Of a DNA stretch of 22,062 nt, positions 1,938 to 15,549 are shown one piece after another (the first letter of the stretch is position 1; each line of letters opens with the position of its first letter). The translations under genes were made by a program, and so were the position numbers. The notes beneath the pieces were generated by a model. The model ran no database searches. It saw only the letters and a program-made list of their open reading frames with translations, and was not told where the DNA came from. Source of the stretch: a virus. The stretch lies in the IMG/VR virus record IMGVR_UViG_3300025769_000951, positions 1 to 22,062 of that record. The stretch is one strand, 5' to 3'.

Positions 1938-3134
1938 ATGGCAACACTTCGCGACAGATTCAACGCGCTTTTTCGTTACCGCGTAGGCAAATACGACAGC
2001 CAAGCAATTCCCAACGAGCTAGGGATTTACGGCCACACGATTAGCGGCGCGAACGTAAACGAAGCGACGGCCCTTACGATTTCCACGGTTTACGCTTGCA
2101 CGTACAAAATCGCAAGTACGCTTGCCAGCTTGAACCTCGATATTTACGAACGCAACGGCCGCAACATTGACGTTGCGAACGTGCATCCTGCGTTCGATGT
2201 AATCAAATACAAGCCGAACGAATATCAAACGGCGTTCGAATTTTGGGAAACCATTATTAGCCACGCCGTGTTGAATGGTTGCGGCTACGCGCTGATTGAA
2301 CGCGACGCACGCGGCTACGCAACGCAGCTTGTTTGCTTGGACTATTACGACGTCGACCGCAAGTTTGTTAACGGCCAGCCCGTTTTTTCGGTTAAGAATG
2401 TCGGAATGGTGCAGCCTGAAAACATGCTGGAAATTTGCAACCTGCAACGCAAAAGCCCGATCCGTTTGCACCGCGAAAACCTCGGATTAGCGAAAAGCGC
2501 CGAGGAGTTTGGCGCGGAATACTTTGGTAGCGGCGGGCAAATGACCGGCATACTATCCAGCGACCAGCCTTTGAAAAAGGAACAAATGGATATTATCCAA
2601 CAAAGCTGGAACAAGGCGCAGCAGCAGGCCGGCACGAAGCTTTTGCCGTTCGGGTTTAAGTATTCGCGAATCAGCATTAGCCCCGACGAAGCGCAATTCA
2701 TAGAAACGCGCAAGTTTCAGGCCGAAGAGATTTGCCGCATTTTCAGCGTGCCGCCTGCCTTAGTGCAACTGGAATCGCAGACGACGTACAACAACGTCGA
2801 GCAACAAAATTTGCAATTCGCACGCCATACCGTTACGCCGTGGGCAAAGCGCATCGAACAGGAAATTGATCGGAAGTTATTGCAGGCACGCGAGCGGCCG
2901 GAGCTGTACAGCAAGTTCAATTTGAACGATTTGTACCGTGGCGACATGCAAAGCCGTGCGGCGTTCTATACGCAGATGCTGCAAAACGGCGTTTTGAACA
3001 TTAACGAAGTGCGGCAAAAGGAAGATATGAACCCGACCGAGGGCGGCGATACGCACGTAGTTCAGGTAAACCAAATTGCCCTTGACAGGCTCGGCGCGTA
3101 CTCGGATAAACTTAGCACGGATGGCGTTCAATGA
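1938..3134 (+). CDS. portal protein (HK97 gp3-like)
   Basis: A 398-residue protein in the place and of the size expected for an HK97-type portal, the dodecameric ring at the head vertex through which DNA passes. Recognisable portal features are the early TALTISTVYACTYKIAS segment (about residues 44-60), an ISHAVLNGCGYALIERD strand (about 107-123), and the conserved C-terminal core FQAEEICRIFSVPPALV followed by QTTYNNVEQQNLQF, and TVTPWAKRIEQEIDRKLL. It ends with a loop on which the downstream protease frame starts. The ATG at 1938 is the only reasonable start, and the 12-nt gap before it holds the rest of a TAAATTGC box. It overlaps the next gene by 14 nt. Confidence 0.93.
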   Translation: MATLRDRFNALFRYRVGKYDSQAIPNELGIYGHTISGANVNEATALTISTVYACTYKIASTLASLNLDIYERNGRNIDVANVHPAFDVIKYKPNEYQTAFEFWETIISHAVLNGCGYALIERDARGYATQLVCLDYYDVDRKFVNGQPVFSVKNVGMVQPENMLEICNLQRKSPIRLHRENLGLAKSAEEFGAEYFGSGGQMTGILSSDQPLKKEQMDIIQQSWNKAQQQAGTKLLPFGFKYSRISISPDEAQFIETRKFQAEEICRIFSVPPALVQLESQTTYNNVEQQNLQFARHTVTPWAKRIEQEIDRKLLQARERPELYSKFNLNDLYRGDMQSRAAFYTQMLQNGVLNINEVRQKEDMNPTEGGDTHVVQVNQIALDRLGAYSDKLSTDGVQ

Positions 3135-5319
3135 TTACCCCGAAAGCGCGGTAAATAACGCCAAACGCGCGTTGAAATGGGCAGACGAAAACGGTTGGGG
3201 CAGTTGTGGCACGCCGGTAGGTAAATCGAGGGCTAACAGCATAGCCAAACGGGAAAAGCTATCTTTGGACACAGTAAAGCGCGTTTACAGCTTTTTAAGC
3301 CGTCACGCACAAAACGCCGACGTACCTTACGACGAAGGGTGCGGCGGTTTGATGTATGACGCATGGGGCGGTAAATCTATGCTCCCTTGGGCGCGCAAAA
3401 CAATAAATAAAATGGAAGAAAAGAACAACAACCACGAAGCCGAGCTGCGTGCGCAGTATGGTGAAGACGTGGAATTAAGAACCGCCGAAGTGCGGGCCGC
3501 CGGCGACGATTCGTTAATCGTGGAAGGTTACGCCAGCAACTTCGAAGTGGAATACGATTTAGGGTATTTCAAAGAGTCAGTAGCGCGCGGCGCATTCGAT
3601 GACGTGTTAGGCGACGACGTTCGGTTCTTGCTAAACCATACCGGCGCGCCATTGGCACGAACTACGAACGGTACGTTAGAACTTACCGTCGACGAAACGG
3701 GCTTGAGATACCGTGCGGCTTTGGCCGACACGCAAGACGGTCGCGACCTTTACAAGCTGATTAAGCGAGGCGACATTACCCAAAGTTCGTTTGCGTTTAC
3801 GATTGACGCCGACGAATGGAGCGAAGACCGTAGCACGCGAACCATTACCAAGGTAGGCAGGTTATTAGACACGAGCGCGGTGACTTATCCGGCTTCGGCT
3901 ACGACCTCAGTATACGCGCGAAACATGGCAGCGGCGGCGCAGGAAGCGGAGGAATTGAACGACGAACAGGTAGCAGCAGAACCGGCGACGGAAGAGCGCG
4001 CAGAACCTGAAACCATAAAAACCGAAGCGCGTAACTTTACGCAGAAATCAGAATTTAATTTATCAAATATGACTCTTAACGATTTAAAGGGCCAACGTTC
4101 CGCATACTACGAAGAGTTCGTAGGTATCGGACAGAAGGCCGACAGCGAAGGCCGTTCATTGACTGAGGCCGAGCAGGAACGATGCGACAAGCTCGACAAC
4201 ATGGTTGCCGACTTGGATGTAAAAATTAAGCACAAGCAGCGCGAGCAGGAAATGGTCGCACGCATGGCGCAAAGCGGATCGGCATCTAACGCCGAGCAGC
4301 GCGAAGTTGAGCGCGTGAACGGTTCGTTTAGCATCAGCCGAGCGGTTGCAGCAGTAGCCAACGGCCGCAACTTGGAAGGCGCGGAAGCTGAATGGGCAGC
4401 GGAAGCACAGAAGGAAGCACGTTCACAGGGCTTGCAGATGGCCGGACAGATTGCCATTCCTACCATTGCTTTGCGTGCTGGAGGTGCTGACGACTTCCAA
4501 GCAGGCAGCGGCGACGGTTCGGGCTTTGTTCCTACTTCCGTTCCGGCAGCAATTGAGGCTTTGCGCGCTCCAACCGTTATCGAAGGTTTGGGCACAACCG
4601 TTATCCGTAACGCTACCGGTAACTTGCAGTTCCCACGCGTAAGCGTTAAGGCGGCAGGAACTGGCGAAGGAGAAGTTGACGCGAACGCAGCTTCAAGCAT
4701 GGAGATGGACGAGTTGACACTCTCTCCACAACGCGTTTCTGCTAACACCACTTACAGCAAGCAATTGGTATTGCAGGGCGGTGCAGAAGTCGATTCATTG
4801 ATTGCCGGCGAATTGGCCGCAGCTATGAACGCTTACGTTGACGACGCTTGTTTCGATACGGTTTTAGCTTCAACTGCAATCAACGTCTCAACATCAGGCG
4901 ATACTGCTTTGAACGCTGCTTTGGCGTTTAAAATGGAAGCCGAAGTATTGGCAGACGGTGGCAACTTGGCCGGCGGCGTTTACGTCATGTCTCCACTTGC
5001 TTACCAGCTTTCCAAGGCTGAAGCGGCAGTAGCTTCTGTTTCTCCACTGTGGGAAAACGGACAGTTCAACGGTTTCCGTGCGGTTGCTACTCCTTATTTG
5101 GTGGATGGTTTGTTGGCTGATGCTTCAACCGCAGCCGGTCAAATGTTGTTCGGTAACTTCGCACAGGGCGGTATCCTCGCTTACTTTGGAGGAATCGACT
5201 TGTTAGTTGATCCATACAGCGCGGCAGGCACTGCACAAATCAAATTGCACGTCAACCGATTCTTCGACTTCGACGTACGCCAGCCCGGCGCACTCGCGAA
5301 GGCTACGCAATTGACTTGA
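3121..5319 (+). CDS. prohead protease - major capsid protein fusion
   Basis: One uninterrupted frame of 732 residues with four parts. Residues 1-100 form a Cys/Trp-rich domain (NNAKRALKWADENGWGSCG, then EGCGGLMYDAWGG) that occurs at the N-terminus of some phage capsid proteases. Residues 105-270 are an HK97-type (S78) prohead protease with the expected His in RFLLNH (H173) and Ser in ITQSSFAF (S222/S223), followed by TYPAS. Residues 275-395 are an acidic linker and a charged coiled-coil delta/scaffold domain. Residues 400-732 are the HK97-fold capsid protein, which is the shell subunit. The start at 3121 is preferred over ATG 3076, which would overlap the portal gene by 59 nt. Codon use shifts in the capsid part (many GCT, TCT, GGT, CCA), consistent with heavy expression. 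Confidence 0.9.
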   Translation: MAFNDYPESAVNNAKRALKWADENGWGSCGTPVGKSRANSIAKREKLSLDTVKRVYSFLSRHAQNADVPYDEGCGGLMYDAWGGKSMLPWARKTINKMEEKNNNHEAELRAQYGEDVELRTAEVRAAGDDSLIVEGYASNFEVEYDLGYFKESVARGAFDDVLGDDVRFLLNHTGAPLARTTNGTLELTVDETGLRYRAALADTQDGRDLYKLIKRGDITQSSFAFTIDADEWSEDRSTRTITKVGRLLDTSAVTYPASATTSVYARNMAAAAQEAEELNDEQVAAEPATEERAEPETIKTEARNFTQKSEFNLSNMTLNDLKGQRSAYYEEFVGIGQKADSEGRSLTEAEQERCDKLDNMVADLDVKIKHKQREQEMVARMAQSGSASNAEQREVERVNGSFSISRAVAAVANGRNLEGAEAEWAAEAQKEARSQGLQMAGQIAIPTIALRAGGADDFQAGSGDGSGFVPTSVPAAIEALRAPTVIEGLGTTVIRNATGNLQFPRVSVKAAGTGEGEVDANAASSMEMDELTLSPQRVSANTTYSKQLVLQGGAEVDSLIAGELAAAMNAYVDDACFDTVLASTAINVSTSGDTALNAALAFKMEAEVLADGGNLAGGVYVMSPLAYQLSKAEAAVASVSPLWENGQFNGFRAVATPYLVDGLLADASTAAGQMLFGNFAQGGILAYFGGIDLLVDPYSAAGTAQIKLHVNRFFDFDVRQPGALAKATQLT
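4069..5319 (+). CDS. major capsid protein from an internal start (alternative product)
   Basis: ATG at 4069, in frame inside the fusion ORF, opens a 416-residue protein that begins MTLNDLKGQRSAYYEEF. This matches the way free-standing HK97-type capsid proteins begin, with a helical delta domain acting as internal scaffold. The preceding bases are unusually A/T-rich for this genome (gaatttaatttatcaaat), as favoured for Shine-Dalgarno-independent initiation in Bacteroidota. Capsid protein is needed in far greater amount than protease, so a separate product is plausible. Cleavage of the fusion by its own protease is the alternative, and both could occur. Confidence 0.5.
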   Translation: MTLNDLKGQRSAYYEEFVGIGQKADSEGRSLTEAEQERCDKLDNMVADLDVKIKHKQREQEMVARMAQSGSASNAEQREVERVNGSFSISRAVAAVANGRNLEGAEAEWAAEAQKEARSQGLQMAGQIAIPTIALRAGGADDFQAGSGDGSGFVPTSVPAAIEALRAPTVIEGLGTTVIRNATGNLQFPRVSVKAAGTGEGEVDANAASSMEMDELTLSPQRVSANTTYSKQLVLQGGAEVDSLIAGELAAAMNAYVDDACFDTVLASTAINVSTSGDTALNAALAFKMEAEVLADGGNLAGGVYVMSPLAYQLSKAEAAVASVSPLWENGQFNGFRAVATPYLVDGLLADASTAAGQMLFGNFAQGGILAYFGGIDLLVDPYSAAGTAQIKLHVNRFFDFDVRQPGALAKATQLT

Positions 5320-5385: not shown

Positions 5386-5949
5386 ATGATGACCGTTGAA
5401 ATAACAGGTACGCCGACGCTCGACAGCGTGATAACGGTTGCCGACCTCAAAGAACATTTGCGCGTTGACCACAGCGACGAAGACACGCTAATAACAAGCC
5501 TGCGCGCGGCCGCTATTTCGTGGATCGAGGACTATTGCAATACGCGGCTGGGCGACGTTACGGCCGTGGGCTACCTCGACTTTTTTTATAACGCGCGGTT
5601 CCCAGTCGGGCCGGTGAACTCGATTTCTTCAGTCACGTACACCGACGCGAATGGCGACACGCAGACGCTGCCCGCAGCGAAGTATTGGTACGACATTAAA
5701 ACGAAGTCGGCGCGCATCACCTTCGACAACGTGCCACAGCTTTACGACGATACATTTCACGCCGTACAAATCAATATGAACGTAGGGTACGCCGAAGCCG
5801 ACGTACCCGAACCCGTTTTGCACGCGATCCGTTTACTCGTTGGGCATCTGTACGAGAACCGCCAGCAGGTAACGCGCACCAAGCTAAACGAGTTGCCGTT
5901 AGGTATTCATTCCCTTGTTTCACCGTACCGCAATATTTTAGCTGTATGA
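5386..5949 (+). CDS. head-tail connector (gp6-like)
   Basis: A 187-residue protein directly after the capsid gene. The N-terminal half (ITVADLKEHLRVDHSDEDTL, then helix LRAAAISWIEDYCNTRLG) is the classic pattern of HK97 gp6/YqbG-type connectors, which form the ring under the portal. The C-terminal VPEPVLHAIRLLVGHLYENR helix also fits. An upstream in-frame TTG-type opening at 5326 lies in the terminator and is unlikely, so the start is ATG 5386 (or 5389), preceded by tattttagcgac with no Shine-Dalgarno sequence. The end overlaps the next gene by 4 nt (ATGA). The central sequence LDFFYNARFPVGPVNSISSV is a beta insertion common in this family. Confidence 0.88.
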   Translation: MMTVEITGTPTLDSVITVADLKEHLRVDHSDEDTLITSLRAAAISWIEDYCNTRLGDVTAVGYLDFFYNARFPVGPVNSISSVTYTDANGDTQTLPAAKYWYDIKTKSARITFDNVPQLYDDTFHAVQINMNVGYAEADVPEPVLHAIRLLVGHLYENRQQVTRTKLNELPLGIHSLVSPYRNILAV

Positions 5950-6278
5950 GGTTTGGCACAATGGACAGGCGAATAACGTTGCAACGCGCTACGTTGGCAG
6001 CAAATGCGTACGGCGAACGCGCGGAAACGTGGGGTACGCTGGCGACGGTATGGGCGGAAATACAGTACAAAGAAGGCAGCGGCCGCGAAGCTGTACAAAG
6101 CGACCAACTTTACAGCCGGCAACCGGTGCATTTCATTATTCGTTATTCGTCCGACGTTAGCGGCGTACGGCCCAGCGACCGCGTAAGCTACAACGGCGAT
6201 ATTTATGAAATTGAAGGCGTGCAGGAAATCGGGCGCGCGGAAGGCTTAAGAATTGTAACCAGCTTGCGAGGTGAATAA
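5946..6278 (+). CDS. head-tail joining protein (SPP1 gp16-like)
   Basis: A 110-residue protein with the hallmark opening MDRRITLQRATLAANAYGER and a following W-G-TLATVWAEI strand, typical of the head-closure/joining family (SPP1 gp16, HK97 gp7). It also has the later DRVSYNGDIYEIEGVQEIG segment, a beta-barrel motif of that family. Such proteins sit below the connector ring and stop DNA leaking from the filled head. The start may be ATG 5946 (overlapping the previous stop as ATGA) or the internal ATG five codons later, which matches the usual family N-terminus more tightly. The stop codon overlaps the next start (TAATG). Confidence 0.88.
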   Translation: MRFGTMDRRITLQRATLAANAYGERAETWGTLATVWAEIQYKEGSGREAVQSDQLYSRQPVHFIIRYSSDVSGVRPSDRVSYNGDIYEIEGVQEIGRAEGLRIVTSLRGE

Positions 6279-6817
6279 TGGACGATATGCAACGACAATT
6301 GCGAAAAATCGAAAAGCGTTTAGATCGCGCTGCGCGGTTTGGAAGCATCCAGCACAAAGAACTGAAAAAGGTAAATCGTAAGGCGGCGCGCGTTTACGTA
6401 CCTATTCAGCGAGCCGAGATTACAAATTACCCTGAGGACATTATAATAAAGCGCAGAAAAAAAGGCGGCGGCACGACAAAAACAATCGTACGTAGCGGCC
6501 AATTGAAAGCGTCTATTGGCGTTTGGTTTAGCAAGGGAAGCAATACCGCCATAGCTGGGCCGCGAGTCAATCCGGGCGGCAGCAAACGCTTTAAACGCAA
6601 AGTTCGCGAAAGCGCAGACGGTTGGTTCGCTCACATCGTAGAAATGGGCGCACGGCCTTCGCAGATGGAGAAAGGAATGATACCCGGCCGACGTGGGGCA
6701 CGCTTAAAGACCAAAAACACGGGCGCATTCAAGCGCGGTTTGACCTTAGCGCAACCAGCGGTAAAAAAAGCGCAGGTAAGTTTGTACCGAAGCGAGTTTA
6801 AACGATACATGAAATGA
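6278..6817 (+). CDS. HK97 gp10-like neck/tail protein
   Basis: A 179-residue, strongly basic protein. A helical N-terminus (about residues 1-45, rich in Lys/Arg) is followed by VRSGQLKASIGVWFSKG, by ADGWFAHIVEMGA at about 110-125 (the F-x-x-x-V/E-x-G signature of gp10-like proteins), and by a Lys-rich C-terminal helix. Members of this family act in the neck or in tail completion, between the joining protein and the tail terminator, which matches the gene order here. Start and stop are fused to the neighbours (TAATG before, ATGA after). The exact role is inferred from family and position. Confidence 0.75.
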   Translation: MDDMQRQLRKIEKRLDRAARFGSIQHKELKKVNRKAARVYVPIQRAEITNYPEDIIIKRRKKGGGTTKTIVRSGQLKASIGVWFSKGSNTAIAGPRVNPGGSKRFKRKVRESADGWFAHIVEMGARPSQMEKGMIPGRRGARLKTKNTGAFKRGLTLAQPAVKKAQVSLYRSEFKRYMK

Positions 6818-9582
6818 CTGTAGGAAAAGCGATATACTACCTTTTGACCAATGCGACCGACGTAACGGACGTAGTAAGTACGCGCGTTTACCCGGAAATA
6901 GCGCAGCAGGATGCCGATTTGCCCTATATCGTTTACGCCATTGCCAACAACGAGCCGACCGATACGAAGCCCGAACCGTCGAAGCTCGATACCGCGCAAG
7001 TTGAGGTTAATATTTACTCGCAAAGCTACACGGAATGCATCGACTTAGCCGTAGCCGTTCGCGCTGCCCTCGACCGCGTGAAGGGTACGTACAACGGCGT
7101 TAACGTGCAAAGCATCCAGTACCTAAACGAAGTAATCGACTTCGACGAACCGCAACGCGCTTACAACATTAACGCCGACTACGACGTACGTATAAGCCGC
7201 AGCGGTTTTGAAATTGCGCAAGGTTCACCCATTACCGGCGTGGAGCTTGGCGAGCTTTCCGATGTAGATGTAACAGGCGTCACAAACGGGCAACTAATCG
7301 CATACAACAGCACCACGGGCAACTGGGAAGCGGCAGACGACGCGGGCGGCGCGGAAACGCTGGACGATCTTACTGACGTAGATGCGAGCGTACCGTCAGC
7401 GGGGCAGCTCCTTGCTTACGGGCAGGACACTTGGCAAACCATAGACCAAGACGAATTAACCTTGCCAATTAGTAGCGTCACGGGATTGCAGACGGAGCTA
7501 AATACCATACCTGACAATATTGACGATCTCGACGACGTTAAGATAGTTGGCACGCCTAGCGAGGGCGAAGCGCTTGTATACACAAGCGGCTTTTGGTCGC
7601 GCGGCACGGCGGGCGCTTCGACGCTGGACGAATTAGACGATGTGCAAGTACCAACGCCAAGTTCAGGCGCGGTGCTGCAATACAATGGCGCATACTGGGC
7701 GGCATCTGCTTTGTCTATTCCTTCCGTTCCCAACACGTACTACCACCAACGTTATAGCTCAGAAGCTGGCACATTGCGTTCAGGCGCTACGGAAACGGTC
7801 GAACTGTACTATACGGCACAAGCGGACGGCGACGGGTTAAGCGAATCGGCGTCAAGCGACACGCCCACCAGCGGTTACGATATTCGGCGAAAGTTGTGGT
7901 ACGCTGAGAAAGCGCAGGCCGACCCCGACACGTCAGCCGATTGGACGCAGTTTACAGCCATCGCCGACAATACGACATTCAACAATGCGAAGGCGGCTTT
8001 GCTTGCTTACCTGAAGGAACGCACGGGCGGCACGGTTCCGATTAGCCTAAAGATGACGTGGGAGGAGGTAGCGCAAGCGCCCGCGTTTACGGGTCTCTTA
8101 AATGAGAGCTACGGAAGCGGAGCAGAGGCGGCGTACTCCACGCGGCGGCTGAACGGCAACGTAACCGAATGCATGGTTATCCGCAGGGCATCGGATTCGA
8201 CGACGACTACGATAGGCTTTGTAGATGGAGACATCGACGAGAGCGCGATAGAAACGTTTTGCACGGGTACGACGTGTACCGTGGTAACGTGGAAAGACCA
8301 AAGCGGAAATTCAATAGATGCAAGTGCGGTGACGGAAGGCACAATATATGATTCAGGAGCTTTAAAAAAGATTAACGGAACGCTGTACATTGACGGCGGA
8401 ACATATGACGCATCTTTCACAGGAAGCTCAACGGGGCATCTTTTTATGACATTGCAACGTCCAACGGTCGCAACGCCGCGATATATAGCTACTTCGGACA
8501 GTACAAACAAATATTACTTTTATGGGTATGACGGCAATACAGGCGGCACAAGTAGCGGCGTAACTGTTAACAGCTACAGATTAAACGGAACTACAGCAAG
8601 CTCTGTAAATAGAGATTTTATATGGGATAACACCGAAAGCCAAACACAGGCAACGGTTGACGTTGACGACAGCAGTTTCATAGATAGGCGTTTGTATTTT
8701 AATGTTTTTTCGGCTCCTTATTATCAGGAATTTATTTATTATTCCTCGACAAAATCCACCGCAAACCGCAACTCCATCGAATCCAATATAGGCGACTACT
8801 TCACCCAAAACACGCCACTGCTCGACACGTACTCAGGGGCGGCGGCTGCTTATTCCTTGCGGCTTTTGGACTCGACGTATACAGGGAGCGCGGTAGAAGT
8901 TTACAACGGCTCGAGTTATGCGGACATCGGTTTCAACGTGTTCGGCGAGGTGGATACGGTTGCACTTGCTGCGCATTGCGGAAGTAACGACGGGTTTGTT
9001 TCGGTTTGGTACGACCAATCGGGAAACAGCAACGACGCGACGCAAGGAGTGACGGCGAATATGCCGAAGATTTACGACGGGACTACGGGCGTGGTGACGG
9101 AGAACGGGAAACCTGCGGTGGAGTTTGATGGAAGCGGTGATAATTTTGTAGCTTCATCCGTTAGCCTTACTCAAGCCGCAACCTCAACAATAGTTGCAAA
9201 AACAAACGACTCAAACGTAAATTATTTCTTTGATGGTGACGATAGTACCAATCGTTTATTAGCTTTTCAAAATAGTACGGCTGACGGATTTAGTTTGTTT
9301 GGCGGTTCTATTCTTGCATCAGGCACAAAGAACACAAACCAAAACCTGCACTTCGCTTTGTTTAATGGCGCTTCTTCTACCTATCATTTGAATGGAAATT
9401 CAATAGCAAGCGGTAACCTTGGTAGTAATTCTGCCGATGGTATAACGATTGGAGCGCGTTATAATGTAGATGGCAACGAATTAAACGGTAATATGCAGGA
9501 GCTTATTTTTTGGGACTCGGACCAATCCAGCAACCGCACGAACATCGAGGACAACATCAACACCTTCTATTCAATCTACTGA
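6814..9582 (+). CDS. tail terminator-like domain fused to adhesin/fibre
   Basis: A 922-residue protein. Residues 1-128 (KAIYYLLTNATDVTDVVSTR, then VYPEIAQQDADLPYIVY, with later strands) look like a gp11/DUF3168-type tail terminator, exactly where that gene belongs. With no stop codon the frame continues into four fibre repeats of the form L-x-D/E-L-x-D-V...G...Y...W (about 145-300), a linker (about 305-425), and two tandem concanavalin/arabinofuranosidase-lectin-like domains (about 428-665 and 667-922). Each lectin domain has the A-A-Y-S-x-R, IGF and W-x-DQSGNS motifs and ends in an NR-x-x-IE-x-NI helix. A receptor-binding role is inferred. The lectin parts contain AT-rich stretches unlike the first part, which suggests acquisition. 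If the fusion is translated whole, the fibres would project from the head-tail joint. Confidence 0.75.
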   Translation: MTVGKAIYYLLTNATDVTDVVSTRVYPEIAQQDADLPYIVYAIANNEPTDTKPEPSKLDTAQVEVNIYSQSYTECIDLAVAVRAALDRVKGTYNGVNVQSIQYLNEVIDFDEPQRAYNINADYDVRISRSGFEIAQGSPITGVELGELSDVDVTGVTNGQLIAYNSTTGNWEAADDAGGAETLDDLTDVDASVPSAGQLLAYGQDTWQTIDQDELTLPISSVTGLQTELNTIPDNIDDLDDVKIVGTPSEGEALVYTSGFWSRGTAGASTLDELDDVQVPTPSSGAVLQYNGAYWAASALSIPSVPNTYYHQRYSSEAGTLRSGATETVELYYTAQADGDGLSESASSDTPTSGYDIRRKLWYAEKAQADPDTSADWTQFTAIADNTTFNNAKAALLAYLKERTGGTVPISLKMTWEEVAQAPAFTGLLNESYGSGAEAAYSTRRLNGNVTECMVIRRASDSTTTTIGFVDGDIDESAIETFCTGTTCTVVTWKDQSGNSIDASAVTEGTIYDSGALKKINGTLYIDGGTYDASFTGSSTGHLFMTLQRPTVATPRYIATSDSTNKYYFYGYDGNTGGTSSGVTVNSYRLNGTTASSVNRDFIWDNTESQTQATVDVDDSSFIDRRLYFNVFSAPYYQEFIYYSSTKSTANRNSIESNIGDYFTQNTPLLDTYSGAAAAYSLRLLDSTYTGSAVEVYNGSSYADIGFNVFGEVDTVALAAHCGSNDGFVSVWYDQSGNSNDATQGVTANMPKIYDGTTGVVTENGKPAVEFDGSGDNFVASSVSLTQAATSTIVAKTNDSNVNYFFDGDDSTNRLLAFQNSTADGFSLFGGSILASGTKNTNQNLHFALFNGASSTYHLNGNSIASGNLGSNSADGITIGARYNVDGNELNGNMQELIFWDSDQSSNRTNIEDNINTFYSIY
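7246..7713 (+). repeat. four diverged fibre repeats in the adhesin
   Basis: About 30 residues per copy, with the pattern L-x-D/E-L-x-D-V, then a Ser/Thr/Gly-rich turn, then G-x-x-L-x-Y, then W. Examples are LGELSDVDVTGVTNGQLIAY, LDDLTDVDASVPSAGQLLAY, IDDLDDVKIVGTPSEGEALV and LDELDDVQVPTPSSGAVLQY. Such repeats build the shafts of phage tail fibres. The copies have diverged at DNA level. Confidence 0.75.
8095..8808 (+). other. first lectin-like domain of the adhesin
   Basis: Residues about 428-665 of the fusion protein. Landmarks are AAYSTRRLNG, TTTIGFVDGDID, TWKDQSGNSIDAS and STANRNSIESNIGDYF. The same landmarks recur in the same order in the following domain, so the two are tandem paralogues of a concanavalin-like fold seen in phage receptor-binding proteins. 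The 3' half (about 8480-8750) is markedly AT-rich. Confidence 0.6.
8812..9579 (+). other. second lectin-like domain of the adhesin
   Basis: Residues about 667-922. Landmarks are AAAAYSLRLLDSTYTGSAVE, YADIGFNVFGEVDT, VSVWYDQSGNSNDATQ, PAVEFDGSGDNF and SNRTNIEDNINTFYSIY. It is closest to the arabinofuranosidase-B/concanavalin-like repeats found in phage tail proteins. It is the C-terminal and presumably most exposed tip domain. Confidence 0.65.
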
Positions 9583-9977
9583 TGCAGTATATCATAGTAC
9601 TTCCAACCGCCACGCAGACAAGCGAACGAAGAGCGTACCAAATCACGCGAGAACTCTACAACATCTCGCGGCCCGTACTCATTCAGGCAGAAGGCGAAGC
9701 GGCTTCCACCGTGTTCGGTATCGTAGTCCACCCCGACGGCGTACAGAACGCGCTGCAAGTGGATACGGATTACCTGATCCACGTTCACGAAGCGGCGACG
9801 CTGGAGAAGCTGGTCGCTTGCTTTCCTGAGCTGACCAATGACGAGCGGTTTGAGCTGAGCGCATACGTGCAGACGAATCACAAATTTCCGTTCCAGCACA
9901 TCATACCCAGCACGACGACGGTGCGGGATCATGACTACATGGTGCAAAACGGTTGGTTCGAAACTGACGAAATTTAA
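9582..9977 (+). CDS. unknown 131-aa protein downstream of adhesin
   Basis: Starts at ATG 9582, fused to the previous stop (TGATG); the longer open frame upstream is a shadow of the adhesin gene. The protein is not recognised. It has an N-terminal hydrophobic strand (MQYIIVLP), a mid-section of alternating strands, and an acidic end (WFETDEI), with no TM segment or metal-binding motif. The sequence KLVACFPELTNDERFELSAY suggests a helical pair. Placed between the adhesin and the major tail protein, it could be an adhesin chaperone or a tail accessory protein. Both ideas rest on position only. Confidence 0.7.
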   Translation: MQYIIVLPTATQTSERRAYQITRELYNISRPVLIQAEGEAASTVFGIVVHPDGVQNALQVDTDYLIHVHEAATLEKLVACFPELTNDERFELSAYVQTNHKFPFQHIIPSTTTVRDHDYMVQNGWFETDEI

Positions 9978-9995: not shown

Positions 9996-10151
9996 ATGAA
10001 GGTAACGATTCAAAAACCCTACAACAAAGACGGTTGGAAATGGCCCGCCGGTACGGTTGTAGATGTATCCAACAAATTTGCGGCAAAGCTCAAGAAAGGC
10101 GGATACTTGGACAAGCCCGAAAAGACAGAACCAAAAAAATCTAAGAAATAA
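9996..10151 (+). CDS. small basic protein (51 aa) before the major tail protein
   Basis: A short gene. The protein opens MKVTIQKPYNKDGWKWPAGT, continues with a V-V-D-V strand and KFAAKLKKGGYLDK, and ends in a Lys/Pro-rich tail. The pattern (strand, W/G-rich turn, V-x-V, then a helix ending K-G-G-Y) is that of small SH3-like or head/tail accessory proteins often found among phage structural genes. Codon use and the one-base overlap with the next start (TAATG) support expression. No specific function can be named. Confidence 0.7.
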   Translation: MKVTIQKPYNKDGWKWPAGTVVDVSNKFAAKLKKGGYLDKPEKTEPKKSKK

Positions 10152-10597
10152 TGGCCCAAACAACAGGCATCATTAACAGCTCGTCCATTCGCGTCTTTTT
10201 GGGCACGACGGACGACAGCGAGGTAGTAGTTGACCACGTAACAGAATGCAGCATCAGTATGTCCACCGACATGCGCGACATCACCACGAAAACAAGCGGC
10301 GGTTGGCGCGAGCTTTTGCCCGGCCTGAAGTCGGCAAGCCTGAGCCTTTCCGGTTTGTTTGCTGAGGATGCTACAAACGGTTTCAACGCTTTGGTAGATC
10401 ACCAAATCGCAGGCGACAAATTGTACGTAATCTTCACGAACACGGGTTCGGGTTCAGCGGCTAACGCAGGCGACGAGCAGTTCGATGTTGCTGGATACAT
10501 CACCAGCCTCGAACAAACCGCAGGCGTTGAAGACAACGTAGGTTTTTCAATGACAATCGAAGTTACTGGCACAGTTGTACGCGAAGTAATTGCGTAA
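10151..10597 (+). CDS. major tail protein (TP901-1-like)
   Basis: A 148-residue, mostly beta protein. Its features match the TP901-1-type tail tube subunit: an early strand SIRVFLGTTDD, then VTECSISMSTDMRDITTKTS with the following GGWRELLPG, the family's D-x-T-x-K-x-S-x-G-W-x-E hallmark, then SLSLSGLF, and a C-terminal SMTIEVTGTVV strand. Subunits stack as hexameric rings to form the tail tube. Position directly before the tail chaperones and tape measure is canonical. Codon use is similar to the capsid part, with many GGT/GCT codons, as expected for an abundant protein. Confidence 0.92.
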   Translation: MAQTTGIINSSSIRVFLGTTDDSEVVVDHVTECSISMSTDMRDITTKTSGGWRELLPGLKSASLSLSGLFAEDATNGFNALVDHQIAGDKLYVIFTNTGSGSAANAGDEQFDVAGYITSLEQTAGVEDNVGFSMTIEVTGTVVREVIA

Positions 10598-13210: not shown

Positions 13211-15549
13211 TGGCTGACCCGATACGACTACAAGCAGAATTTACCGACGACCTCGGCAACGATTGGCAGGTAAATATCCACGACAGCGAGTACGTTGGAA
13301 GTATCGTGCCCTTTAAGCTGGGCGCGGATGGTTTTGTGCTGCGCTACAGCGGTAACAACGAAGACCGTTACCAACCCGTAATTGGTAGCGAAGTAACGTT
13401 TACGCTGACGGAAGAAAACAGCGACCATACGACCTTTATGGACTTGTTAGCCACGAACGTCGAAGTTCGGTTTTCGGTAAGCGTTCGCAAAGATCCCGAC
13501 GGCACTGATGAATTTTGGTGGGGCGGCATCTTGTTGCCTGAACAGGTGATTCGGCCGTTTGATTATTACCCGATTCAAAACACGCTTACAGCATCTGACG
13601 ACCTTGGCAATTTGCGCAGCGTCAAATACAACAACGGCGGCAGTGCATACACGGGTATTGAGTCAGGCGTTGAACACTTGTTAAACTGTTTAAACAAGAC
13701 GCGAGCCACGCACCTATGGAGCACGGACGACTTTCTGTACTATGTCAATGATTTTGACAGCACCGATTACACAGGCAGTGACCAGTTAGACGACACGCGC
13801 ATAAGCCATTACGGTCTATACAACCTTGACCAAAACGGCTTAAATCAATATTACAGCGCATTTGAAGTGCTCGAAAGCTTGGCGCGCGTCTTTAACGCCC
13901 GCGTTTTTCAAGCACAGGGGAAATGGTGGTTTTTGCCTGTAGGCGCGCAGAAGTACAGCACGACGCTTACGGTAGAAGGCACGCAGAAGGACGGCACAGC
14001 ACTCACGCAGCAAAGCCTTTCAGCCGCCAAAGCATTCGACAGCAATTTCGAACGCTTGCGCGGTTACGAATACAGCTATTTAGCACCACTCAAGACGGTA
14101 ACACGTACGCGCAGGTTCAACGGCAATTTGCCCGTAATACAGGACAACCTGTTCACCGAATCGCAATTCGGCACGACGTTAAGCGATACGGACATAGATT
14201 ACGACAGTGGTACAATTTTGGCCGTCAGCGGCACGTTCAACTACACTTATAACGGCGACGGTACAAGCACAGGCAACGACCGTGTAAGCCGCGTAGAATT
14301 AGAGTTCACTATAAAGATTGGCACGAAATATCTGCAACGAAACGTAACGTATGTAGGTTCGCAACTTGTATTCAACGGCTTTGGCGACGCTAGCGAATTC
14401 CCGTACGAATACGCGACGCATTCATACGGCGATACAGTGTTAATCAGTTCGCTAAACACGTACACCATAGTCAGCCCCATATTTGACAAGCGCGACGGTG
14501 AAAGCCTTTCCATTCCGTTTTTTATCGAGTTGCCAGCCTTAGCTACTGATGAAAGCGGCCTTGATATAACCGTGGACATCAACGGCATTGACGACACGGG
14601 TGCAACGGATACCGATTTAACAAACACCAGCGACGCGGATTATGAAATCGTCGTCCTGCGAGCCGACGTAATTGGCGACGAACCGTTAGGCGATACCGTA
14701 AGCTTTACCGCTACGAATAGCGATACGGCACGCGCCGATCTCGACCAAGGCGAAGTTCTGTTCGGCGATTATCAAACGGTAAACGCTGACGGTACAATAA
14801 GCTTTATCGAAGGCGTAACACAAACCTTTAGTACTTCATGGCAGTCGCTGAACTACACGGGTACAGGAAAAAGCATTAACAAGCTTGCAGTTTATGAAAT
14901 ACTGGGCGGCCAAGTAAAGCCGACGAGAATACAACGCGGATCGGTTTACGGCTTACCGATTTACATGTGGCAGGTTATCGACGACACGGACGGCGATTAC
15001 GCTTTATTCGAAATGACGTACACGGCACGCAGCCTTACGAACGAAGTAGAAGCGTTTTTAATTAGCCGCGACGTTACTACGGTAACGGCTGACCAAGACG
15101 ACGTAAAAGATACGACCACGCCAATAACGGAAGCCGATGTAGTAAAAGCTGCGACCGCGTTCCAAGCTTCAAACAAAATGCTTGGCGATGGTTACCGAGG
15201 GTACGGCAGCCGTGACCATCGAGTGAACCGTACAATAACCAACAGAGACGGTTCAACCGATAGTGTAGATGACGAAGATTTGCACATCATGAATACGTGG
15301 ACGGGTGGCAATGGTTCGGCTACTTTGTACCTGCCTAAAATCGGCCAAAGCCACGGGCGTATTGTTCAGTTCCATAGCGACAGCACCATAAGCGCGAATA
15401 CATTTGTGACGTTGACAGTAAACCCAAGCGACACAGGCACTACGATTGACGGCGCGAGCAGTTACGACTTTAACCGTGCCTACGATGGAATTACTATCTT
15501 AGGGCACACCGATGACAACTGGTACATAATCCAAAAGAAAGAAAAATGA
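13210..15549 (+). CDS. large tail-tip/baseplate protein
   Basis: A 779-residue protein after the tape measure, mostly beta and rich in Asp/Thr/Tyr. The N-terminal part (about 1-110) resembles the strand-rich domain of distal tail or hub proteins (FEW..GGILLPEQVIRPFDYYP). A middle part has FEVLESLARVFNARVFQAQG with KWWFLPVG, similar to hub proteins that rebuild a beta domain. The C-terminus (about 690-779: LPKIGQSHGRIVQFHSDSTI then TLTVNPSDTGTTIDG) resembles trimeric fibre-tip folds. It is the only large gene here, so it probably combines the Dit and Tal roles, hub and host contact. No peptidase motif was recognised. It shares ATGA with the next gene. Confidence 0.75.
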   Translation: MADPIRLQAEFTDDLGNDWQVNIHDSEYVGSIVPFKLGADGFVLRYSGNNEDRYQPVIGSEVTFTLTEENSDHTTFMDLLATNVEVRFSVSVRKDPDGTDEFWWGGILLPEQVIRPFDYYPIQNTLTASDDLGNLRSVKYNNGGSAYTGIESGVEHLLNCLNKTRATHLWSTDDFLYYVNDFDSTDYTGSDQLDDTRISHYGLYNLDQNGLNQYYSAFEVLESLARVFNARVFQAQGKWWFLPVGAQKYSTTLTVEGTQKDGTALTQQSLSAAKAFDSNFERLRGYEYSYLAPLKTVTRTRRFNGNLPVIQDNLFTESQFGTTLSDTDIDYDSGTILAVSGTFNYTYNGDGTSTGNDRVSRVELEFTIKIGTKYLQRNVTYVGSQLVFNGFGDASEFPYEYATHSYGDTVLISSLNTYTIVSPIFDKRDGESLSIPFFIELPALATDESGLDITVDINGIDDTGATDTDLTNTSDADYEIVVLRADVIGDEPLGDTVSFTATNSDTARADLDQGEVLFGDYQTVNADGTISFIEGVTQTFSTSWQSLNYTGTGKSINKLAVYEILGGQVKPTRIQRGSVYGLPIYMWQVIDDTDGDYALFEMTYTARSLTNEVEAFLISRDVTTVTADQDDVKDTTTPITEADVVKAATAFQASNKMLGDGYRGYGSRDHRVNRTITNRDGSTDSVDDEDLHIMNTWTGGNGSATLYLPKIGQSHGRIVQFHSDSTISANTFVTLTVNPSDTGTTIDGASSYDFNRAYDGITILGHTDDNWYIIQKKEK

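What the first reader, a model, noticed from the sequence alone, without database searches (positions are those of the whole stretch)
6814..9582. Tail terminator fused to a large adhesin
The first 128 residues look like a tail terminator and lie exactly at the tail-terminator position of the gene order. The same frame then runs on into fibre repeats and two lectin-like domains. Receptor-binding domains are normally at the tail tip. A fusion here would place up to six adhesins at the head-tail joint as neck fibres or whiskers, perhaps for host-surface or mucus glycans. No second tail terminator gene was found.
Basis: partly seen in the sequence, partly recalled or inferred. Interest (0 to 1): 0.7.

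Follow-up and report, generated by a model that had tools for sequence, protein, structure and literature searches.

The report
Tail terminator fused to swappable adhesin
In this uncultured marine phage the ring protein that caps the tail where it meets the head also carries a long, exchangeable, probably sugar-binding arm, so these viruses probably grip cells or surface sugars from the neck as well as from the tail tip.

Summary
Window 6814-9582 is one open frame of 922 aa. Residues 1-130 are a tail terminator by Pfam, PHROGs and predicted fold (best match the RcGTA terminator, Z 15.8). They sit at the canonical place, and no second copy was found. The rest is four fibre repeats, a compact domain (310-425) and two copies of a domain related to GH54 arabinofuranosidase B, with conserved ends and a variable middle.

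It is neither a one-off nor an assembly error. All 57 distinct complete terminator genes found in this phage group are extended (261-1224 aa); more distant relatives have standalone 129-133 aa terminators. The terminator part co-varies with the head-closure protein. The adhesin plus the next gene (9582-9977) is swapped as a cassette, also between phages with no other DNA similarity. In two other lineages the same cassette is fused to other terminator-like domains: one of terminator fold by a low-confidence model, one supported only by weak profile evidence. In one sister group the terminator carries a knob that the window phage has at its tail tip.

Placement at the neck, copy number and ligand are inferred; no virion was examined. 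The nearest known counterpart is the separate collar-fibre protein (NPS) of lactococcal phages.

The parts
6814..7203 (+). Tail terminator domain, residues 1-130
   Evidence: PF11367, PHROG 347; AF2 fold, RcGTA Z 15.8
7204..7740 (+). Linker and four fibre repeats (LxDLxDV...GQxLxY...W), residues 131-309
   Evidence: read from the sequence; PHROG 13853 match at residues 140-174; tail-fibre matches of residues 131-353
7741..8088 (+). Conserved compact domain AdH1, residues 310-425
   Evidence: up to 96% identical across phages with different anchors; AF2 pLDDT about 90 over most of it
8089..8817 (+). First GH54 AbfB-related domain (L1), residues 426-668
   Evidence: 28% identical to L2; PF09206 in the same place of relative L006
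8818..9579 (+). Second GH54 AbfB-related domain (L2), residues 669-922, variable middle
   Evidence: profile matches AbfB 1wd3 E 1.5e-6; variability
9582..9977 (+). Companion gene, 131 aa, start overlaps the adhesin stop; travels with the adhesin; possible chaperone or cap
   Evidence: follows the adhesin on different anchors; identity co-varies with AdH1, rho 0.52
5946..6278 (+). Head closure Hc1, expected partner of the terminator ring
   Evidence: PF05521; rho 0.87 with the terminator
10151..10597 (+). Tail tube protein, expected partner of the terminator ring
   Evidence: PF06199, PHROG 1407
15160..15546 (+). Knob at the C-terminus of the tail-tip protein; fused to the terminator instead in L128, L130 and L137 records
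   Evidence: single copy per record; tip protein without it in those records

Best explanation
The protein is the phage's tail terminator with an exchangeable adhesin as C-terminal arm. The first 130 residues probably form the usual ring that caps the tail tube and docks on the head-closure ring. The stretch from 131 on would leave the ring at its outside as a stalk of fibre repeats ending in a compact domain and two GH54-related domains with a variable face, giving up to six arms at the head-tail joint. The arms most likely bind glycans of the host surface, capsule or surrounding polysaccharide as an ancillary adhesion device, like the collar fibres of lactococcal phages. The small protein encoded next, swapped together with the adhesin, most likely assists its folding or caps it. 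Shown: the fusion, terminator family and predicted fold, absence of a detected second terminator in the record, conservation in the group, cassette swapping. Inferred: location in the virion, copy number, ligand, ancillary rather than primary role, role of the small protein.
For: Terminator identity by sequence and fold. Canonical position; Bacteroides phage Bacuni_F1 and MT835917 have the same order with a standalone 129-133 aa terminator. No second PF11367 copy found. 57 of 57 distinct complete group members are extended. Terminator co-varies with head closure (rho 0.87) and tube (0.57) but little with AdH1 (0.30); AdH1 co-varies with the companion gene (0.52). Cassette DNA is 68-93% identical in seven contigs that share no other detectable DNA similarity with the window. 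The same cassette sits on another terminator-fold anchor (L054 type, 36 of 36 complete genes extended) and on an anchor with weak terminator signals that is standalone in some phages (L039/L164 type). The knob sits either at the tail tip or on the terminator. Carbohydrate-binding collar fibres exist elsewhere (PMC6669499), and separate terminator decoration proteins exist in phage 812 (PMC12886913).
Against: No virion, proteome, cultured host or binding assay. All relatives with the fusion are metagenomic or uncultured. The GH54 match covers only about 70-90 residues at the N end of the domain and catalytic residues were not mapped. The L054-anchor model has mean pLDDT 54. How a hexamer would carry fibre stalks, which are often trimeric, is not explained. 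Proteolytic removal of the arm after assembly cannot be excluded.
Confidence: 0.74

Rival explanations
1. The arm is a dispensable or assembly-related extension: it stiffens the neck or helps assembly and binds no host structure.
For: Terminator decoration proteins of phage 812 were proposed to reinforce the neck; the NPS collar of TP901-1 is non-essential.
Against: Fast exchange as a cassette, a highly variable middle of the end domains, and the same cassette on collagen-like fibres of other phages fit a binding function better.
Confidence: 0.12
2. The fusion is a precursor: it is cleaved after translation, the terminator stays in the neck and the adhesin is released or attached elsewhere.
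For: Not excluded by sequence; the linker at residues 133-139 has low model confidence.
Against: No internal start or slippery site was found near the junction; an unsplit frame is kept in 57 distinct genes. No cleavage motif was searched for.
Confidence: 0.08
3. The neck-borne adhesin is the main receptor-binding protein and decides host range, rather than an ancillary binder.
For: No other large adhesin gene lies in the record apart from the knob on the tip protein; the cassette is the most freely exchanged part measured.
Against: The tail-tip protein keeps a conserved knob; neck fibres known elsewhere are ancillary.
Confidence: 0.15
4. Residues 1-130 are a former terminator used only as an anchor; a terminator of another family does the capping.
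For: The L054 type shows that terminator-fold proteins can be undetectable by sequence, so a second divergent one could be missed.
Against: The domain lies in the canonical place, co-varies with head closure at rho 0.87, and no second PF11367 match was found.
Confidence: 0.04

Closest known systems
Neck passage structure (NPS) collar fibres of lactococcal 936 and P335 phages
   Same: Adhesin arms at the head-tail joint; conserved N-terminal part, several classes of exchangeable C-terminal carbohydrate-binding modules, ancillary host binding (PMC6669499)
   Different: Separate gene with a BppU-like N-terminal ring domain, proposed to sit at the portal/adaptor level (PMC10747895); here the arm is part of the terminator chain
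Tail terminator / tail completion family (PF11367 gp17; lambda gpU fold)
   Same: Residues 1-130: family match, predicted fold, gene position, no second copy found
   Different: Known members are mostly 107-204 aa; among the best 50 viral structure matches only one clear extended terminator (385 aa, 'Bacterial repeat domain', ct6oU4) was seen
Terminator decoration proteins and beta-sandwich terminator domain of Staphylococcus phage 812
   Same: Additional protein mass on the outside of the terminator ring (PMC12886913)
   Different: Separate decoration proteins, proposed to reinforce the neck, not adhesins
Shared tail fibre + chaperone modules of distantly related Alteromonas phages
   Same: Host-recognition protein and small companion exchanged between unrelated phages as one unit (PMC10579305)
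   Different: Fibre sits at the tail end, not on the terminator; the companion here has no detected similarity to a known chaperone
GH54 alpha-L-arabinofuranosidase B (AbfB, 1wd3)
   Same: The adhesin domains match its N-terminal part
   Different: Match ends after about 70-90 residues; enzymatic activity not established

Membership tests
Tail terminator (PF11367 / gpU fold) | Sequence match above the curated cut-off | tested here: met
   43 bits against 24.5
Tail terminator (PF11367 / gpU fold) | Terminator fold | tested here: met
   AF2 residues 1-132; RcGTA Z 15.8, Bxb1 Z 14.5, T5 p142 Z 13.6, lambda gpU Z about 12
Tail terminator (PF11367 / gpU fold) | Encoded between head-completion genes and tail tube; no other terminator in the record | tested here: met
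   Gene order; one PF11367 match only; same place as in Bacuni_F1
Tail terminator (PF11367 / gpU fold) | Hexameric ring between head closure and tail tube in the virion | not testable with these tools
   no virion; multimer modelling not available
Neck/collar fibre (NPS type) | Separate fibre gene with its own N-terminal anchor ring domain | tested here: not met
   Adhesin and terminator are one ORF in the window; all 57 distinct complete terminator genes of the group are extended in frame
Neck/collar fibre (NPS type) | C-terminal carbohydrate-binding modules, exchangeable between phages | tested here: inconclusive
   Exchange shown; carbohydrate binding only suggested by the GH54-related domains
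Neck/collar fibre (NPS type) | Fibres seen at the head-tail joint | not testable with these tools
   no images
GH54 alpha-L-arabinofuranosidase | Match to the catalytic-domain family | tested here: inconclusive
   PF09206 above cut-off in relatives L006, L039, L048, L054, L036, but only for the first 80-90 of 315 positions; the window protein itself does not reach E 0.1
GH54 alpha-L-arabinofuranosidase | Catalytic residues present | not tested
   The match ends before most of the domain; residues were not mapped

The most novel reading that the evidence does not exclude
The terminator is a general platform for adhesin arms in several unrelated marine phage lineages, and host-binding modules move between tail tip and neck; in phages such as this one, without a separate large tail-tip fibre gene in the record, the neck arm is the main host-recognition device, so adsorption starts at the neck.
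Probability: 0.15. Interest if true: 0.88.

Novelty: new variant of a known kind. Interest (0 to 1): 0.68.

Why it matters
Neck and collar fibres are known, but how the lactococcal ones are attached was described as unknown (PMC10747895). Here the arm is covalently part of a ring that a long-tailed phage is expected to need, so its place and number follow from the terminator hexamer. The same adhesin cassette on terminator-like anchors in different phage lineages suggests that the neck is a second site of host-range evolution, which prediction tools that look for receptor-binding proteins only behind the tape measure gene would miss.

Tried and rejected
Assembly or frame artefact: rejected, 57 distinct complete relatives. 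Second hidden terminator: none by PF11367 in the record. Programmed frameshift or internal start giving free halves: no slippery heptamer or in-frame ATG near the junction. Named isolate with the same fusion: not found; the terminator alone hits only MT835917, and the companion protein, the L054 anchor and the L164 anchor hit nothing in the phage collection. PHROG 10356 matches both head closure (its positions 5-101) and the adhesin (315-624), suggesting head closure fused to a similar adhesin; no named example was seen among the rows listed. Host: one genome-collection hit, a 17-kb phage-like contig in a Pirellulaceae MAG, possibly mis-binned; Bacteroides phages share the gene order; host left open. 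Stop-to-stop frames of 296-392 aa for PF11367 in planctomycete genomes were not taken as extended terminators: the one checked in detail, L250, is a 132-aa gene from its start codon. Profile comparison of the L054 anchor with the terminator found nothing; only the structure model showed the relation, so no sequence homology is claimed. Literature searches for a terminator fused to an adhesin or lectin returned no report of one, in an open-access library only.

Full report
Observation. Window 6814-9582 (+) is one frame of 922 aa. It lies behind terminase, portal, protease-capsid fusion, Ad1 adaptor, Hc1 head closure and a gp10-like gene, and in front of a 131-aa gene, the tail tube protein, two chaperone-like genes, the tape measure and a 779-aa tail-tip protein. 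Residues 5-127 match PF11367 (E 5.9e-11) and PHROG 347 'tail terminator' (E 1.3e-18). NCBIfam 'phage neck terminator protein' gives a sub-threshold hit (E 0.0072). PF11367 finds no second copy in the 22,062-base record; related records of 22.8-23.9 kb suggest the record is close to complete, though this was not established.

Fold. An AF2 model of residues 1-430 (37 sequences, mean pLDDT 76.7) gives a terminator domain for residues 1-130. Foldseek and VIA-align give almost only terminators and injection-system caps for residues 1-132: RcGTA Z 15.8 (rmsd 2.3, 125 residues), Bxb1 14.5, phiXacJX1 14.1, T5 p142 13.6, lambda gpU about 12, SPP1 gp17 9.2. Residues 315-420 form a second confident domain that was not searched on its own.

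Adhesin. Residues 143-300 hold four repeats of the kind seen in phage fibres. L1 and L2 are related (28% identity, E 9e-11). In relatives they match PF09206, the GH54 arabinofuranosidase B catalytic domain, above cut-off but only over its first 80-90 positions; a profile of L2 matches AbfB 1wd3 at E 1.5e-6 over about 70 residues. Across 14 L2 domains the N part is 70% identical on average, the middle 21%, the C part 49%, a pattern expected for a scaffold with a varying binding face.

The fusion is the rule in this group. A search with the whole protein gave 68 IMG/VR loci, and one with the terminator profile alone 315 relatives, of which the best 80 were read. Of 57 distinct complete terminator genes of the group all are extended, 261 to 1224 aa; 20 more run off the contig (its 58th entry is the standalone outgroup L070). 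L122 (430 aa) and L140 (638 aa) have further adhesin pieces in neighbouring frames and may be broken by sequencing errors. Distant relatives with the same gene order have a standalone terminator: MT835917 133 aa, Bacteroides phage Bacuni_F1 129 aa. In the viral structure library most terminator matches are 107-204 aa; one extended example (385 aa) appears among the best 50.

Cassette swapping. Over 24 non-redundant loci pairwise identity of the terminator follows that of head closure (Spearman 0.87) and tube (0.57), but hardly AdH1 (0.30); AdH1 follows the companion gene 9582-9977 (0.52). The pairs are not independent, so these are descriptive values. L001 and L006, for example, share 46% in the terminator but 96% in AdH1. 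At DNA level the cassette is 68-93% identical between the window and L036, L039, L043, L048, L054, L065 and L067, which show no other DNA similarity to the window at the threshold used.

Other anchors. In L048, L056, L036, L065 and L067 the cassette sits on short or collagen-like anchors as in ordinary fibres. In L033, L042, L043 and L054 it sits on an anchor without sequence similarity to terminators. Its model has low confidence (mean pLDDT 54), yet the best Foldseek matches are lambda gpU (E 5e-4), Mu, pyocin R2 and other terminators, and VIA rows 1-44 are terminator or cap entries or same-fold proteins, best Z 9.8. All 36 complete genes with this anchor are extended, 470-1296 aa. The L039 anchor is standalone (133 aa) in five of the eleven distinct complete genes and fused to 992-1282 aa in the other six, five of them with this adhesin. 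It shows weak terminator signals: hhalign P 7.8e-5 but probability 33%, PF11367 E 0.11, NCBIfam neck terminator E 0.024. Three of the records with this anchor are 35-37 kb; none of the records tested has another PF11367 match. Its gene lies directly before the terminase genes; terminators outside the late cluster are described in ceduoviruses (PMC12474359).

Knob exchange. The tail-tip protein of the window ends in a 129-aa knob. The same knob occurs once per record: in a tail-tip-sized frame, as a short gene behind the tip (L025 record), or on the terminator (L128, L130, L137 records); in the two of these whose tip protein was read in full, it lacks the knob and is followed by other large genes. 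Binding modules thus appear to move between the two ends of the tail.

Mechanism. Six terminators are expected to form the cap ring; in contractile phages the terminator C-terminus reaches the outside, where it contacts the sheath (PMC10491603; PMC12886913), so an arm from residue 131 is sterically plausible. The best reading is an ancillary adhesion device at the neck, like the NPS fibres of lactococcal phages, whose N-terminal ~180 residues are nearly constant and whose carbohydrate-binding ends vary (PMC6669499). The companion gene behaves like a cognate chaperone or cap of the adhesin (compare PMC10579305) but matches no known family.

Limits. Location, stoichiometry, ligand and role are inferred. 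All relatives with the fusion are uncultured and the host is unknown. The literature library is open access only.

Noticed in passing
window 3076-5319: Prohead protease (PF04586) and major capsid protein (PF05065) are one 747-aa ORF with a further N-terminal domain; in Bacteroides phage Bacuni_F1 protease and capsid are separate genes.
   Followed up: no
L241 12120-13523 (- strand; record of L164): The head-closure protein is extended to 467 aa (weak PF05521 match at residues 5-110, then about 350 residues of unknown type) in phages whose L039-type anchor is standalone; similar long frames in three further records.
   Followed up: partly
PHROG 10356 (matches window 5946-6278 and 6814-9582): One PHROG profile covers both a head-closure domain (positions 5-101) and the GH54-related adhesin (315-624), suggesting that other phages fuse the adhesin to head closure.
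   Followed up: partly
L128-L139: Terminator of 261 aa carrying the knob that the window phage has at the end of its tail-tip protein.
   Followed up: yes
L036 4458-6694 and 7068-9926: Two adhesin genes of the same cassette type close together, both with collagen-like stalks, in one phage; the first is followed by the companion gene.
   Followed up: no
L090-L093, L101: Terminators with other C-terminal extensions (384 and 698 aa) without the AdH1 and GH54-related domains.
   Followed up: no
L072 (Rhodococcus phage REQ2) 5572-6600: A separate gene with the GH54-related domain lies two genes behind the annotated tail terminator.
   Followed up: no
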